Source: Thermanaerothrix sp. (lineage in GTDB: Bacteria; Synergistota; Synergistia; Synergistales; Synergistaceae). From it: a stretch of DNA of 39,128 nt. This document shows positions 33,587-39,077 of this stretch, in pieces. The notes beneath the pieces were generated by a model, which worked only from the letters and a program-made list of their open reading frames with translations, was not told where the DNA came from and ran no database searches. Numbering within the stretch: position 1 is the stretch's first letter; each line of letters opens with the position of its first letter. Position numbers and translations under genes: made by a program. The stretch lies in NCBI GenBank assembly GCA_026417795.1, contig JAOACP010000019.1, positions 1-39,128 on the forward strand, read 5' to 3'.

Positions 33587-36097
33587 ATGAACATCATGGA
33601 AAATTCCCGTTTTGCGGTTCCCATAGATAAACTCCGTAGAAGAACCGATGTTCGTTCCTTGGGGTTTGCCGACACCGACGAACTTGGTTGCCTCAAGGGG
33701 CTGATAGGGCAGGAGAGGGCTGTGCGGTCCATATCCTTTGGGTTATCCGTTAACAGCAAGGGTTATAACCTATTTGTTGTTGGCAACCCAGGGAGCGGCA
33801 GGACAACCTATGTGCTGGAGGAACTAGCCAATAGGGCGAAGGAGATGCCCGCTCCTGACGATTGGGTGTATGTCTATAACTTCAAGGAGCCCCAGGAGCC
33901 CATGGCCATAAACCTGCCTGCGGGAATGGGTAGGGAGCTGGCGAAGGACATGGAGGAGACCCTGGAGGATCTTAAGGTTACGTTAAGCAAGGCCTTTGAT
34001 AATAGCCAGTATGAGGACAGCAAGGCCCAATTGGTTCGGGAGTTCCAGGAACAGGTTAACTCCCTCATGGAGGAGTTGAAGGATTGGGCAACGGAGAAGG
34101 GATTTGCGATCAAGAGAACGCCTCAGGGTTTTGTGAACCTTCCGTTGGTTAAGGAGGTCTCCGAATCGGGGGAGGTCTCCCAAAGGGAGATGCAACAGGA
34201 GGAGTTTGAAGCCCTCGGTGAGGAGGAGCAACAGCGGCTTCAGAGGGTATCGGAGGAGATATCCCAGAGGACGCTGGAGATCTTAAGGCAGATAAGGGAA
34301 AGGGAGAAGGGGCTTAAGGACCGGATAAAATCCCTGGAGGCAGAGATATGCAGGGGGGCCATAAAGTCCCATTTTGACGAGCTTAAGGGGACTTACGGTT
34401 CCTATGGCAGTTGTTCCCAGTGGTTGGACCAGCTTGCGGAGGATGTGGTGGCCAACTTCAGTGCCTTTATCGCCGCGGGTAGGGATGAGAACGCGGAGGT
34501 TGATTTTTCCAGATATCACGTTAACGTGTTTGTGTCAAACGATCCCACCCAAGGGGCGCCGGTAGTAAGGGAGACCAATCCGACCTATTATAACCTGATT
34601 GGCAAGGTGGAGTACGAAAGCCGCCAGGGTTATCTATACACGGATTTCAAAAAGATCGTCCCCGGTGCCATACACAGGGCCAACGGTGGATTCCTGGTGC
34701 TCGAAGCGGAGGAGCTGTTTCGGCACTTCATGTCTTGGGATGCTCTCAAGCGGGTGTTGAGGACGCAGGAGCTTTCGATAGAGAACTTGGGGGAACAACT
34801 GGGATTTGTACCTGTTTCATCATTGAGGCCCGCCCCTATCCCAGTTGATCTTAAGGTGGTCATAGTTGGTACCTACTGGATCTACTATCTGCTTAACATA
34901 TACGACCCGGAGTTTCAGAAGATATTCAAGATAAAGGCGCATTTTGACTCGGATATGCCTAGAAACCCCGAGACGGAGAAGCTGTTGGCCTGTTTTGTGG
35001 CTAACTTCGTCAAAAAGGAGGGGGGTATCCCCTTCAGCTCAGAGGCGGTGGCGGAGATAATCGAATGGTCGTGCCGCCTTTCCGAGAACCAGGACAGGAT
35101 GTCCACCCAATTCAACAGGATAGCGGAGATCCTGGTGGAATCAACCGCATGGGCAAGGATGGACAGGGCTGCAAGGGTTGAAAGGTCTCATGTTAGAAAG
35201 GCGATAGAGGAGAAGATATTTAGATCAAACCTCATCGAAGAGCGGCTGCGCAGGGCTTTCGAAGAGGGATTTGTAAGGGTGGACACCGAGGGTAGGGCGG
35301 TGGGACAGATAAACGGCCTTACCGTGGTTGACATGGTTGACCATGCCTTTGGCCACCCAGTTAGAATAACCGCTAACGTGTTCATGGGGCAGGAGGGGGT
35401 TGTGAACATAGAGCGGGAGGTGAAGATGACCGGTCCCATCCACAACAAGGGGCTGCTTACCCTCCAGAGTTACTTGGGGCGTAAATATGCTCAGGATATG
35501 CCTTTGTCCCTTTCTGCCAGGATAGCCTTTGAGCAGACCTATTCTGGCATAGAAGGAGACAGCGCATCCTCTACGGAGCTCTACTGTCTCATATCCGCCC
35601 TAGCGGGTATCCCACTTCGTCAAGATGTGGCGGTCACTGGTTCAGTGGATCAGTTTGGCAATGTGCAGCCAATAGGTGGTGTTAACGAGAAAATAGAAGG
35701 GTTTTTTCGGTACTGTAAGTCCAAAGGTCTCACCGGCACCCAGGGGGTTATGATCCCGGTTCAAAACGTCAAGAACCTCATGCTTCACCACGAGGTGGTG
35801 GATGCGGTAAGGGAAGGGAAGTTCCACATATGGGCAGTGGAACACGTGGATCAGGGGCTTGAGCTTCTTACCGGAGTCCAAGCCGGATCGCCTGGAGAAG
35901 ATGGCACTTATCCTGATGGTACCGTCCACGGGCTTGTCAAGGAAACGCTGAAGAAGATGTTAGATAAGCTTAGGGAATTTAAGAAGGGGAGTAATAACGC
36001 CTCCGCCTCTGTTGGTGATGATGGGGATTCGGGGAGCGGCGATGAGCCGGTGGATGTGGACGATCCGGCAGGGTCTGACGATGGTGAAGAGGATTAG
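33587..36097 (+). CDS. Lon-family protease with degenerate ATPase motifs (LonC/AAA_32 type)
   Basis: The C-terminal domain has the Lon serine-lysine dyad: EGDSASSTEL (Ser659) and GGVNEKIEGF (Lys702), 43 residues apart as in E. coli Lon. The N-terminal AAA-like part differs from Lon. Its P-loop is GNPGSGRTT (Arg72 instead of Lys) and the Walker B position reads GGFLVLEAEEL (about 367-377) without the usual Asp. A long charged helical insertion (about 120-260) precedes it. These traits fit LonC or AAA_32-type proteases, some of which degrade unfolded protein without ATP. The last 35 residues are a highly acidic tail. ATG 33587 or 33596 may be used. 836 residues; nth overlaps its 3' end. Confidence 0.88.
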   Translation: MNIMENSRFAVPIDKLRRRTDVRSLGFADTDELGCLKGLIGQERAVRSISFGLSVNSKGYNLFVVGNPGSGRTTYVLEELANRAKEMPAPDDWVYVYNFKEPQEPMAINLPAGMGRELAKDMEETLEDLKVTLSKAFDNSQYEDSKAQLVREFQEQVNSLMEELKDWATEKGFAIKRTPQGFVNLPLVKEVSESGEVSQREMQQEEFEALGEEEQQRLQRVSEEISQRTLEILRQIREREKGLKDRIKSLEAEICRGAIKSHFDELKGTYGSYGSCSQWLDQLAEDVVANFSAFIAAGRDENAEVDFSRYHVNVFVSNDPTQGAPVVRETNPTYYNLIGKVEYESRQGYLYTDFKKIVPGAIHRANGGFLVLEAEELFRHFMSWDALKRVLRTQELSIENLGEQLGFVPVSSLRPAPIPVDLKVVIVGTYWIYYLLNIYDPEFQKIFKIKAHFDSDMPRNPETEKLLACFVANFVKKEGGIPFSSEAVAEIIEWSCRLSENQDRMSTQFNRIAEILVESTAWARMDRAARVERSHVRKAIEEKIFRSNLIEERLRRAFEEGFVRVDTEGRAVGQINGLTVVDMVDHAFGHPVRITANVFMGQEGVVNIEREVKMTGPIHNKGLLTLQSYLGRKYAQDMPLSLSARIAFEQTYSGIEGDSASSTELYCLISALAGIPLRQDVAVTGSVDQFGNVQPIGGVNEKIEGFFRYCKSKGLTGTQGVMIPVQNVKNLMLHHEVVDAVREGKFHIWAVEHVDQGLELLTGVQAGSPGEDGTYPDGTVHGLVKETLKKMLDKLREFKKGSNNASASVGDDGDSGSGDEPVDVDDPAGSDDGEED

Positions 36098-36806
36098 GAG
36101 ATCTGATATCCCAGGAGAAGGGAAGGCAGAAAGGGTTCTTGCTGTTTTTGATGCTTTGGAGGTCGCTTACGGCAATGAGAGTTCCGTCGCCTTAACTCCC
36201 AGCAAGGAGCCCCTTGAAGGCCTTATATTGACGGTTCTGTCTCAAAATACCAACGATAGAAACAGGGATAAGGCCTATCAGGAGCTTGTGAGGAGGTTCC
36301 CTGCGTGGGATGCTGTGGCGGCTGCATCTGTGGAAGAGGTGGCAGAGGCGATAAGGGTTGCTGGGCTTGGGAACAGCAAAGCAGCGAGGATAAGGGAAAT
36401 CCTGGGCGTTATTAGGGATCGGTTCGGAGGATACACCATGGAGCCGATGAAGAGCTGGTCCGTTCAGGATATCAGGGAATTTTTGCTTTCCCTCCCGGGG
36501 GTCGGTCCAAAGACTGTGGCCTGTGTTCTGGTCTTTGACCTGGGGATCCCGGCGTTTCCTGTGGATACCCACGTTGCGAGGTTGAGCGTCCGGCTTGGCT
36601 TTGTGCCACCTGGTATGGAACCCAGTGACGTTCAGGTGGTTTTAGAGGGGTTGTTGCCGCCGGAGAGGTACATTGGAGCCCATGTTAACATGATAAGCCA
36701 TGGCAGGGCAGTATGCAGGGCTAGGGGCCCAAATTGTAGGGCATGTGTAGTGGCAAGCCTGTGCCCCAGGGTTGGAATCGCTTTGGGGGATCCCGATAGG
36801 GCTTGA
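36081..36806 (+). CDS. nth: Endonuclease III (Nth)
   Basis: Nth is a base-excision-repair glycosylase/AP lyase for oxidised pyrimidines. The helix-hairpin-helix LPGVGPKTVACVLV carries the catalytic Lys144, and PVDTHVARLSVRLG the catalytic Asp162, 18 residues apart as in E. coli. A [4Fe-4S] cluster motif C-x6-C-x2-C-x5-C closes the protein (CRARGPNCRACVVASLC). ATG at 36081 overlaps the protease 3' end by 17 bp and gives 241 residues; an earlier in-frame ATG (36012) would add a non-homologous stretch read from the acidic-tail codons. A terminator follows at 36857. Confidence 0.94.
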   Translation: MVKRIRRSDIPGEGKAERVLAVFDALEVAYGNESSVALTPSKEPLEGLILTVLSQNTNDRNRDKAYQELVRRFPAWDAVAAASVEEVAEAIRVAGLGNSKAARIREILGVIRDRFGGYTMEPMKSWSVQDIREFLLSLPGVGPKTVACVLVFDLGIPAFPVDTHVARLSVRLGFVPPGMEPSDVQVVLEGLLPPERYIGAHVNMISHGRAVCRARGPNCRACVVASLCPRVGIALGDPDRA

Positions 36807-36856: not shown

Positions 36857-36887
36857 AAAAAATGGGAGGGGAATACCCCTCCCATTT
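36857..36887. terminator. Bidirectional terminator between nth and the YerC-like gene
   Basis: AAATGGGAGGGG (36860-36871) pairs perfectly with CCCCTCCCATTT (36876-36887), with an AATA loop. The left A-run gives a T-run for minus-strand transcripts. The YerC-like gene's stop codon overlaps the right arm. Confidence 0.85.
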
Positions 36888-37191
36888 AGCCTTTTGGCTT
36901 GTCGCGATCCTTCAACCTACTGAGAGCGGTTTTGTAGCCGTCTGCTCCGTAATCAAGAAATTTCTTGACTCGACTTATGGTGGCAGTGCTCGCTCCGGTT
37001 CTCTGGGCGATTTGAGGGTATGTCATGTTTTCACTGAGCAACCTCGCCACTTCAAGCCTCTGGGCAAAGGCCCTGATCTCCCCTATGGTGGCCACGTCTT
37101 CAAGGAAACGATAAACCTCGTCCTCTTCTTTGAGAGCTAGAATTGCTCTGCACAGCTGATCCGTTAGCTTGTCTTTCCACCGGTCGGTCAC
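36886..37191 (-). CDS. TrpR/YerC-family helix-turn-helix regulator
   Basis: A 101-residue protein of the YerC/YecD type related to Trp repressor. The helix-turn-helix is YPQIAQRTGASTATISRVKKFLDYG (about residues 58-82), preceded by the helical EVYRFLEDVATIGEIRAFAQRLEVARLL dimerisation part that is nearly invariant in this family. The ligand is unknown. The GTG start at 37191 follows a G-run about 9 nt away. It lies 87 bp downstream of the aminotransferase-fold gene on the same strand; no clear promoter was found in the gap. Confidence 0.88.
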   Translation of the reverse strand: MTDRWKDKLTDQLCRAILALKEEDEVYRFLEDVATIGEIRAFAQRLEVARLLSENMTYPQIAQRTGASTATISRVKKFLDYGADGYKTALSRLKDRDKPKG

Positions 37192-37278: not shown

Positions 37279-38358
37279 TTAAGCCGTGGCAACTTTTGCT
37301 CCATCTTCTTGGCCAGTGTGCCAGTGATCCCCCATAAGGGACAGGATATCTGCTAAAAGACGGCTTAGTTCCTCCTCCGAGGTTGCAAACACCTGCAGGA
37401 AGGGGATGTTTATATTGGGAGCCTTAACAGGTATCACCCACTCTCTCTGTGAGAATAGCCCTTCTATGTCCTCCCAATCCTTGCAGTTAAAACCGAGCAG
37501 CACGAACGGGCCATCTCCTGGATAAACCTCTACCCCTGGTATCTTTGAGCACCCCTTGGCGAATTCATCCCTTATATAACGACAGGAGTATGTGCGGGAC
37601 TCCATCCAACCGGAACAACGCTTGACCAGGTGGGTTAATATCTCATTTCTTGGGCTTTCCAGTCGGTTGGCGGATTGGAATTTCATTGATTCAGCTTGTT
37701 TCCATATCATGTAACACATGTCCATCCCACCAAGTCCCCAAGCAAAGGACAGTGAACGGATGATTCCAAGCCCGCCGCGGCCTCGCCATAGCTTAATGAG
37801 GTTCGTGGAGAAGTATGGATCCTGGCGAGAGAACTCAGCGTAACGTTGATCTAATATCCAAAGAGAATCTCCACATAGACCGGACAGAGTGGCTAGATCC
37901 TCTGTGGATAGGTTAATTCCTGTTGGGTCGTTTGGCACATCGACGTAAACCACCTCTGGCCTACAGGAAGACCATCGGTCCAGAAATGATTCCATTGGGA
38001 ATGAAAATTTCCCATCGTAGTCTAAGGGTACTGAGATTACTTCACATCCCAAGAATGCAAAGACCTCCCCTGCTCCTCCGCAGCTCCAGGGCATCAGTAC
38101 CCTTGGGCTCCTCATGGATAATGCCAGGTCTCTAAATGGATCTGCCGATGATCCGAATACAAGGATGTTATCGTGGGATTCTCCGATGAGATCCCCCAGC
38201 CCACGTCGCAGGGATATGCATCCGTCATTGCGAGGGACGTTGTAGCTAAGATCCCTAAGGATTCCTCTTATCTCTTCCCTGATTGCGGCTGGAAGTTGAC
38301 GGCTTACTGCCTGGGATCCCTTGAGAAGCCCCCGATTTGCTGATTCTTGAAAGGCCAT
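37279..38358 (-). CDS. Aminotransferase-fold protein lacking the PLP lysine (HisC/CobD-like pseudoenzyme)
   Basis: The scaffold follows class I/II aminotransferases of the HisC/CobD type: GSSADPFRDLAL (about 69-80), VPNDPTGINLS (141-151, the PNxPTG loop), WILDQRYAEFS (167-177, with the Asp and Tyr that hold the cofactor) and RSLSFAWGLGG (201-211). In the last block the family reads SKAFGLAG; here the Schiff-base lysine is Phe205 (TTT codon, 37744-37746). The C-terminal substrate Arg block (usually LRIxxGTxEE) reads LQVFATSEE. Normal transamination is therefore not expected. The frame is open over 359 residues with a good GGGGGG ribosome site, so it is not simply decayed. Function unknown. Confidence 0.85.
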   Translation of the reverse strand: MAFQESANRGLLKGSQAVSRQLPAAIREEIRGILRDLSYNVPRNDGCISLRRGLGDLIGESHDNILVFGSSADPFRDLALSMRSPRVLMPWSCGGAGEVFAFLGCEVISVPLDYDGKFSFPMESFLDRWSSCRPEVVYVDVPNDPTGINLSTEDLATLSGLCGDSLWILDQRYAEFSRQDPYFSTNLIKLWRGRGGLGIIRSLSFAWGLGGMDMCYMIWKQAESMKFQSANRLESPRNEILTHLVKRCSGWMESRTYSCRYIRDEFAKGCSKIPGVEVYPGDGPFVLLGFNCKDWEDIEGLFSQREWVIPVKAPNINIPFLQVFATSEEELSRLLADILSLMGDHWHTGQEDGAKVATA

Positions 38359-38431
38359 AGAGCAGCCCCCCTTCGATTTATCTTGATAAAATGGCGCAAC
38401 AATATCTGAATCAGAAGGCTACCACGCTTAA

Positions 38432-38461
38432 TTGGTAGAGTCAAGTGGTATTTGTTATAAT
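38432..38461 (+). promoter_or_regulatory. Promoter for the arsC-like gene
   Basis: TTGGTA (38432-38437), 18-bp spacer and perfect TATAAT (38456-38461). Transcription would begin about 15 nt before the ATG at 38483, a very short leader holding the GGGGGG ribosome site. Confidence 0.6.
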
Positions 38462-38482: not shown

Positions 38483-38935
38483 ATGAAAGACAAGATAAGG
38501 GTCCTTTTTCTCTGTGGCCGCAATACCGCAAGAAGCCAGATGGGAGAGGCTTTCCTCCGGCACATTGGTGGGGATGTGTTTGACGTGTGGAGCGCCGGCC
38601 TTGAGCCTGGCGATGGAGTTCTTCCCATAGTAAGGGAGGTAATGGGCGAGGTGGGCATAGATATGTCCGACCATTACTCCAAAAGTGCCATGGAACTATT
38701 GGAAAAGGGGCTTGAGTTTGACATTGTCGTAACGGTATGTGATGCCGCCATGGCGGGGCGTTGTCCGGATTACCCTGGAGTTTCCAAGAGACTTCATTGG
38801 CCCTTCCCGGATCCTGCGGCCTTGGAAGGATCCCATGAAGAAAGGCTGCAGGGGGCCCGCAAGGTTAGGGATATGATAAGGGATGCGGTGATAGAGCTGA
38901 TGAAAGAGGAGACGGAGGGCAGGGCCAAAAAATAA
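38483..38935 (+). CDS. arsC: ArsC-type arsenate reductase / low-molecular-weight phosphatase-fold protein
   Basis: The P-loop CGRNTARSQM (Cys11, Arg17, CX5R with the RSQM of thioredoxin-linked ArsC) begins the protein. The redox cysteine region reads VTVCDAAMAGRCPDYPG (Cys86, Cys94), followed by HWPFPDPAALEGSHEERL, typical of the family. The Cys86-Cys94 spacing is one residue longer than in the S. aureus and B. subtilis enzymes. 150 residues. No arsB or arsR is near, so it may act in general arsenate or phosphatase chemistry rather than a resistance operon. Confidence 0.87.
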   Translation: MKDKIRVLFLCGRNTARSQMGEAFLRHIGGDVFDVWSAGLEPGDGVLPIVREVMGEVGIDMSDHYSKSAMELLEKGLEFDIVVTVCDAAMAGRCPDYPGVSKRLHWPFPDPAALEGSHEERLQGARKVRDMIRDAVIELMKEETEGRAKK

Positions 38936-38989: not shown

Positions 38990-39077
38990 GCCGGGATGGC
39001 GGAACTGGTAGACGCATGGGACTTAAAATCCCTGGGGCCCTGTGCCCGTGCGGGTTCGAGTCCCGCTCTCGGCACCA
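38990..39077 (+). tRNA. tRNA-Leu (anticodon UAA)
   Basis: Acceptor arms GCCGGGA and TCTCGGC pair (one G-T); the anticodon loop CTTAAAA gives UAA. A long variable arm marks class II, the T-arm is GCGGGTTCGAGTCCCGC, and CCA is encoded (39075-39077). The outermost anticodon-stem pair is T-T, a small deviation. Confidence 0.93.

What the first reader, a model, noticed from the sequence alone, without database searches (positions are those of the whole stretch)
37279..38358. Aminotransferase-fold protein that has lost the PLP-binding lysine
The reading frame keeps the fold I landmarks (PNDPTG loop, LDQRY, SxxxGLGG) but has Phe205 (TTT) where the Schiff-base lysine should be, and the C-terminal substrate-arginine block is also altered. 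The frame is intact with a good ribosome site, so this looks like a retained pseudoenzyme. It could be a PLP-independent enzyme, a PLP sensor, or a partner subunit of a true HisC/CobD. Its neighbour is a TrpR/YerC-type regulator, so a regulatory link is possible but unproven.
Basis: partly seen in the sequence, partly recalled or inferred. Interest (0 to 1): 0.75.

Follow-up and report, generated by a model that had tools for sequence, protein, structure and literature searches.

The report
Dead HisC beside the histidine repressor
In Thermanaerovibrio and Aminomonas bacteria, a histidine-making enzyme gene has lost its cofactor-binding machinery but is still kept intact, next to and apparently switched by the histidine repressor, which suggests that a former enzyme now has a non-catalytic, probably regulatory, job.

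Summary
Window 37279-38358(-) encodes a full-length HisC-fold protein with Phe205 (TTT) at the PLP lysine. Its three syntenic orthologues (T. velox 71%, T. acidaminovorans 46%, Aminomonas paucivorans 35%) have Phe, Leu and Tyr there, and no lysine is conserved among the four. Most other PLP contacts are also gone (phosphate Arg, Asn before PTG, partner-subunit Tyr, GNGGDE loop), while Asp170 and Tyr173 remain. The coding sequence is under purifying selection (omega about 0.1-0.2; omega = 1 rejected). The parent family is clear: the four nest (100/100) among HisC proteins of other Synergistota families. All 47 of those keep the lysine, and most lie beside hisR (YerC), a TrpR-family repressor that needs histidine to bind DNA. 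The HisR operator just upstream is kept in all four. Two canonical HisC paralogues, one beside the his operon, can supply catalysis. So this is a conserved HisC pseudoenzyme with a HisR site. A non-catalytic role in the HisR circuit is the best explanation but remains inferred (about 0.4). A PLP sensor or active-site-sharing partner is less likely because the PLP site itself is dismantled. Published work calls the gene pair hisC-hisR; I found no mention of the lost active site.

The parts
37279..38358 (-). HisC-derived pseudoenzyme, 359 aa (first gene of a two-gene unit with hisR)
   Evidence: PF00155 37 bits; TIGR01141 58 bits, far below cut-off 276.55; tree; HisC fold
37744..37746 (-). codon TTT, Phe205, at the position of the PLP Schiff-base lysine
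   Evidence: K in all Lys-bearing relatives, F/F/L/Y in the four orthologues
37720..37722 (-). Asp213, where relatives have the PLP-phosphate arginine (K+8)
   Evidence: R in all Lys-bearing relatives aligned, D/D/D/Q in the four
37927..37929 (-). Asp144 of PNDPTG, where relatives have Asn that contacts PLP
   Evidence: N in all Lys-bearing relatives aligned, D in all four
37840..37851 (-). Asp170 to Tyr173 (DQRY), retained PLP-ring contacts
   Evidence: D and Y invariant in both sets
36886..37191 (-). hisR (yerC), TrpR-family histidine repressor, second gene
   Evidence: TIGR02531 125.8 bits (cut-off 42.2), PF01371 98 bits
38374..38393 (-). predicted HisR operator CATTTTATCAAGATAAATCG, about 15 bases upstream of the pseudoenzyme's start codon
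   Evidence: 21.3 bits with a matrix built only from Lys-bearing operons; next best in window 12.0; expected 0.01 per 39 kb
38366..38373 (-). ribosome binding site AAGGGGGG
   Evidence: read directly from the sequence
36860..36887 (-). intrinsic-terminator-like hairpin AAATGGGAGGGG-TATT-CCCCTCCCATTT followed by T, at the end of hisR
   Evidence: read directly from the sequence; not listed by the consensus scan, probably because the stem absorbs part of the T run

Best explanation
This is a conserved pseudoenzyme. SHOWN by sequence: it descends from the HisC that is encoded in an operon with the histidine repressor HisR in most Synergistota families; in the Thermanaerovibrio/Aminomonas lineage it lost the PLP lysine, the phosphate arginine, the ring-contacting asparagine, the partner-subunit tyrosine and the phosphate loop, yet kept the fold, an intact frame under purifying selection, its place before hisR and the predicted HisR operator. 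SHOWN: two canonical HisC genes remain in the same genome, one of them divergent from the his operon. INFERRED: once another HisC supplied catalysis, the hisR-linked copy was kept for a non-catalytic function in the same circuit. Most likely it binds HisR, or a cationic histidine-pathway ligand in its former PLP pocket (where K, R and N became F/L/Y, D/Q and D), and so tunes HisR's histidine-dependent repression of its own operon and the his operon, as yeast Gal3 does beside galactokinase.
For: Non-Lys at the site in 4 of 4 orthologues, Lys in 47 of 47 relatives from other families. The four form one clade (100/99) inside the 29-row hisR-linked-type HisC clade (100/100), apart from the canonical HisCs of the same genomes. 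hisR lies beside the Lys-bearing gene in 21 of 27 plus 16 of 20 fetched loci and beside all four pseudoenzymes. Selection: lnL -4675.7 at omega 0.2 against -4819.9 at omega 1; pairwise dN/dS 0.18. The operator, found with a matrix that excluded these genomes, is the top site of each locus: 21.3, 22.0, 17.6 and 14.7 bits; chance rate 0.12 per 39 kb at 14.7 and 0.01 at 17.5 and above. HisR is predicted to control hisC-hisR and his operons in Synergistetes, and R. gnavus HisR needs histidine to bind DNA (PMC9413887). Canonical HisC next to hisZ and hisB, with hisH-, hisA- and hisF-like frames following.
Against: Nothing here shows contact between the protein and HisR or any ligand; operon partnership alone does not prove regulation by the protein. 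It evolves faster than the canonical HisCs (long branches; omega 0.1-0.2 against about 0.05 or less for HisC_C39), so constraint is weaker. No stretch stands out clearly as a HisR contact: the WMxSRxYSxRY block is the most conserved (permutation P about 0.05), but L075, which is hisR-linked, lacks it. A second hisR exists in the Thermanaerovibrio genomes, so the circuit may be more complex. Only four species carry the dead form.
Confidence: 0.4

Rival explanations
1. It is a PLP-independent enzyme or small-molecule binding protein with a new role outside histidine regulation, using a remodelled pocket (Asp144, Asp170, Asp213, Tyr173); it stays in the operon only by history.
For: Pocket residues changed in a consistent way (N to D in all four; R to D in three) rather than at random, while D170, Y173, S204, W207 and G208 stayed; fold kept with mean pLDDT 85.
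Against: No catalytic motif of another family was found: only PF00155 and weak HisC-type models match. The operator and hisR linkage are kept.
Confidence: 0.2
2. It is a non-catalytic subunit that forms a heterodimer with one of the true HisCs and stabilises or regulates it, as LCB1 does for LCB2 in serine palmitoyltransferase.
For: HisC is a dimer whose active sites lie at the interface (established knowledge of the family); a Lys-less fold-I subunit is known in LCB1 (PMC3794620). Two true HisCs are available.
Against: The tyrosine (NRYPD) that each HisC subunit lends to its neighbour's PLP phosphate is lost in all four, as is the LDKNENP N-terminal segment in three. Neither true HisC gene is near it.
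Confidence: 0.15
3. It is a dying gene: catalysis was lost, and the frame is kept only because a broken first cistron would upset expression of hisR downstream.
For: Long branches, progressive decay (Aminomonas keeps LDRNE and the C-terminal arginine; Thermanaerovibrio lost them), weaker constraint than canonical HisC_C39.
Against: Selection acts on the amino-acid sequence (omega 0.1-0.2, omega 1 worse by 144 lnL units), which frame-keeping alone would not give; intact in four species of two genera.
Confidence: 0.17
4. It still binds PLP without a Schiff base and serves as a PLP sensor, or catalyses with a non-lysine residue as ColD does with histidine.
For: Asp170 and Tyr173, which touch the PLP ring, are kept.
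Against: Phosphate-holding residues (Arg to Asp/Gln, GNGGDE loop, partner Tyr) and the Asn are gone; replacement is by Phe, Leu or Tyr, of which Phe and Leu cannot act as base.
Confidence: 0.05
5. Sequencing error or a recent mutation in one genome.
For: None found.
Against: TTT to a Lys codon needs three changes; three other genomes agree.
Confidence: 0.01

Closest known systems
HisC (histidinol-phosphate aminotransferase, TIGR01141), in the Synergistota hisC-hisR operon
   Same: Fold, length, phylogenetic position, operon partner and operator (operon described in PMC9413887)
   Different: No PLP lysine, no phosphate arginine, no Asn before PTG, no partner tyrosine; 58 bits against a cut-off of 276.55
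Gal3 of Saccharomyces (galactokinase paralogue without enzyme activity that regulates Gal80/Gal4)
   Same: Enzyme of a pathway made redundant, catalysis lost, proposed to stay as regulator of the same pathway (PMC7556753)
   Different: Different fold and kingdom; regulation by the present protein is not shown
HisZ (histidyl-tRNA synthetase-derived regulatory subunit of ATP phosphoribosyltransferase)
   Same: Pseudoenzyme within histidine metabolism; a HisZ-like gene stands in this genome's his operon
   Different: Derived from a synthetase; acts on the enzyme HisG, not on a transcription factor
LCB1/SPTLC1 of serine palmitoyltransferase
   Same: Fold type I subunit that lacks the PLP lysine (PMC3794620)
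   Different: Obligate partner of a catalytic paralogue; here no such partner is linked and the shared-site tyrosine is lost

Membership tests
HisC (TIGR01141 equivalog) | score over the curated cut-off 276.55 bits | tested here: not met
   58.2 bits; orthologues 46.9, 43.8, 103.8
HisC (TIGR01141 equivalog) | PLP Schiff-base lysine in SKAxGLAG | tested here: not met
   Phe205; F/F/L/Y in the four orthologues
HisC (TIGR01141 equivalog) | descent from HisC | tested here: met
   nested in the hisR-linked-type HisC clade, 100/100
HisC (TIGR01141 equivalog) | histidinol-phosphate aminotransferase activity | not testable with these tools
   needs purified protein or complementation
Fold type I aminotransferase (Pfam PF00155) | profile score over gathering cut-off 19.7 | tested here: met
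   37.1 bits
Fold type I aminotransferase (Pfam PF00155) | overall fold | tested here: met
   AlphaFold2 model pLDDT 85.3, pTM 0.86; best PDB matches HisC 3cq5 and CobD 1lkc, E about 1e-17, TM 0.72-0.78
Fold type I aminotransferase (Pfam PF00155) | PLP pocket: Lys, phosphate Arg, Asn, Asp, Tyr | tested here: not met
   only Asp170 and Tyr173 remain
CobD (TIGR01140) | score over cut-off 290.55 bits | tested here: not met
   28 bits
HisR/YerC (TIGR02531), the neighbour | score over cut-off 42.2 bits | tested here: met
   125.8 bits
HisR regulon member | HisR operator in the promoter region | tested here: met
   38374-38393, 21.3 bits; conserved in three orthologous loci; binding itself not tested
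Gal3-like enzyme-derived regulator | binds the repressor in response to a pathway ligand | not testable with these tools
   no interaction data

The most novel reading that the evidence does not exclude
A HisC has been turned into a dedicated, ligand-responsive partner of the histidine repressor HisR: a bacterial counterpart of Gal3, in which the former PLP pocket, now acidic (Asp144, Asp170, Asp213), reads histidine or a histidine precursor, and the Lys-bearing HisCs of sister families may already have been two-job proteins.
Probability: 0.25. Interest if true: 0.78.

Novelty: new variant of a known kind. Interest (0 to 1): 0.55.

Why it matters
Fold-I aminotransferases are among the commonest enzymes, but conserved forms without the PLP lysine seem rarely described in bacteria. 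Here ancestor, intermediate (Aminomonas) and advanced stages (Thermanaerovibrio) can be laid side by side, with operon and operator unchanged, so loss of catalysis can be separated from loss of function. If the protein acts on HisR, it would be a bacterial case of a biosynthetic enzyme reduced to a regulator of its own pathway, and it would prompt a test of whether HisR needs more than histidine in this phylum. It also warns that a 'HisC' label on this gene in these genera, and metabolic models built on it, would be wrong.

Tried and rejected
A genome-contig scan with the window protein found no relative; with A1 it found two distant contigs, of which L065 (PNDPTG but Lys kept) clusters elsewhere. 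A whole-genome count of the HisR consensus with two mismatches gave no excess over its control (26 against 23 in G000), so site counts alone prove nothing; the argument rests on position and conservation. I tested whether the conserved WMxSRxYSxRY block could be a HisR contact: it is the densest block of invariant residues (P about 0.05), but one hisR-linked enzyme (L075) lacks it and unlinked f10 enzymes keep part of it, so it is only a lead. A HisR tree was too poorly resolved to use. A promoter consensus on the minus strand was not found. NG86 dN/dS is near saturation for the wider pairs, hence the codon-likelihood scan, which did not print its own omega estimate, so fixed values were compared. 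No atomic coordinates were available, so pocket distances and dimer contacts were not measured. Sequencing error, CobD membership and recent pseudogene were rejected (see rivals). I found no paper describing a Lys-less HisC, but only open-licence papers could be searched.

Full report
OBSERVATION. The reading frame 37279-38358 (-) is intact, 359 aa, with an ATG and a strong purine-rich ribosome site. It matches Aminotran_1_2 (PF00155, 37 bits) and, weakly, HisC (TIGR01141, 58 bits against a cut-off of 276.55). Residue 205 is Phe (TTT, + 37744-37746) where fold-I aminotransferases carry the PLP lysine. A Lys codon is three base changes away.

WHOSE GENOME. The window is contig 19 of a 1.92 Mb assembly. 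Two complete genomes of the same genus have lengths identical to the published Thermanaerovibrio acidaminovorans (1,848,474 bp, PMC3035242) and T. velox (1,880,838 bp, PMC3910556), so the window is from a third Thermanaerovibrio-like species; a same-family genome of 2,630,170 bp is close to Aminomonas paucivorans (2,630,120 bp, PMC3035310).

ORTHOLOGUES. Of 53 genomes of the family, only these three others carry a clear orthologue: 71, 46 and 35% identity. At the lysine they have Phe, Leu and Tyr.

HOW MUCH OF THE ACTIVE SITE IS GONE. Against Lys-bearing relatives: Lys to F/F/L/Y; phosphate Arg (K+8) to D/D/D/Q; Asn before PTG to D in all four; Tyr of NRYPD (which in HisC reaches the neighbour's PLP; my knowledge of the E. 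coli enzyme) to P/P/P/T; the GNGGDE loop replaced; Asn of xNF to P/P/P/S; C-terminal Arg to Q/Q/Q/R. Kept: Asp170 and Tyr173, PTG, S204, W207, G208. Aminomonas keeps the N-terminal LDRNE and the C-terminal Arg, so catalytic-core loss came first and wider remodelling later. The fold is kept (AlphaFold2 pLDDT 85; best PDB matches are HisC and CobD).

ORIGIN. A search of 188 genomes of the phylum with the four-sequence profile returned, next to these, HisC proteins of other families. All 47 that I read carry the lysine motif. In the tree the four form one clade (100/99) inside that group (100/100), separate from the canonical HisCs of the same genomes. hisR lies within the fetched stretch beside the Lys-bearing gene in 21 of 27 and 16 of 20 loci and directly after the pseudoenzyme gene in all four. 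PMC9413887 reports hisC-hisR operons in six of nine Synergistetes, predicted HisR control of his and hisC-hisR operons, and, for Ruminococcus gnavus HisR, histidine-dependent DNA binding. That paper names the gene hisC; I saw no remark on its active site, and its supplementary genome list could not be read.

OPERATOR. The published consensus is cacTTTAnnnnnnTAAAgtg. A matrix from twelve sites upstream of Lys-bearing genes, with the four dead-HisC genomes left out, gives its best score in the whole window at 38374-38393 (CATTTTATCAAGATAAATCG on the minus strand, 21.3 bits; next 12.0), about 15 bases before the start codon. The top hit in each of the other three loci is at the same place: 22.0, 17.6, 14.7 bits. 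In Markov copies of the window, sites of 14.7 bits or more occur 0.12 times and 17.5 or more 0.01 times per 39 kb. The his-operon intergenic region of this genome has a weaker candidate (12.1 bits; T. velox has a 2-mismatch site in the same region). A hairpin with T run follows hisR (36860-36887).

SELECTION. Between the window and T. velox dN/dS is 0.18 with dS 1.2; the two canonical HisCs give 0.05 and 0.18. Over four species the codon likelihood peaks near omega 0.1-0.2 (-4675.7) and is 144 units worse at omega 1; HisC_C39 peaks near 0.05 and HisR near 0.02. Thus the protein sequence is constrained, though less than HisC_C39. Neutral simulations always break the frame.

WHO DOES THE CHEMISTRY. 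The genome has HisD and two HisC proteins over the family cut-off. HisC_C6 is divergent from a run of hisZ, hisB and hisH-, hisA-, hisF-like frames; HisC_C39 lies among murA, dxr, uppS-type genes (named from sequence by eye). The sister genome G063 has, over 200 bits, only a C39-type HisC and the hisR-linked one. So an added his-operon HisC in this family may have freed the hisR-linked copy from catalysis; this is inference.

MECHANISM. Shown: conserved catalytic-site loss, constraint, gene order and predicted operator. Inferred: a non-catalytic role in the HisR circuit. The pocket exchanged positive for negative or neutral residues (K, R, N to F/L/Y, D/Q, D), which would suit a cationic ligand such as histidine or histidinol rather than PLP, but no structure of the pocket was measured. 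Gal3 (PMC7556753) shows that a pathway enzyme can end this way; LCB1 (PMC3794620) shows that a Lys-less fold-I protein can persist as a partner subunit. Against the latter here: the lent tyrosine is gone and no catalytic partner is linked.

VERDICT. Real, conserved and more thoroughly non-catalytic than first reported. New variant of a known kind (enzyme-derived pseudoenzyme beside its pathway regulator). Function in regulation is the best guess but unproven.

Noticed in passing
G001 C1:476826-477089 and 477199-477462; G020 C136:663-926 and 1004-1267: Two hisR/yerC genes in tandem, about 80-110 bases apart, in two genomes of the family.
   Followed up: no
G000:C48:605-868 (L145), G052:C1:1535884, G051:C1:333384: A second hisR outside the hisC-hisR unit in all three Thermanaerovibrio genomes; in T. 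velox a site-like CAGTATATCTAACTAAATAG (13.6 bits) lies just upstream.
   Followed up: partly
L141:10041-10060 and L141:2146-2165 (G000 contig 2): Two strong HisR-like sites (18.0 and 16.9 bits), one just after the hisD reading frame.
   Followed up: no
L147:6641-7504 (-): A HAD-like phosphatase reading frame (FDVDGTLVDVRDSYP) next to hisC_C6 with no NCBIfam match; possibly a histidinol-phosphatase.
   Followed up: partly
window 38483-38935 (+): Divergent low-molecular-weight phosphatase/arsenate reductase-like gene (PF01451), with a TTGGTA-18-TATAAT promoter at 38432-38461, shares the intergenic region with the HisR site.
   Followed up: partly
window 33587-36097 (+), 36012-36806 (+), 38990-39077 (+): Lon-like protease (AAA_32, LonB/LonC domains), endonuclease III-like HhH-GPD protein and tRNA-Leu(taa): ordinary neighbours.
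   Followed up: yes
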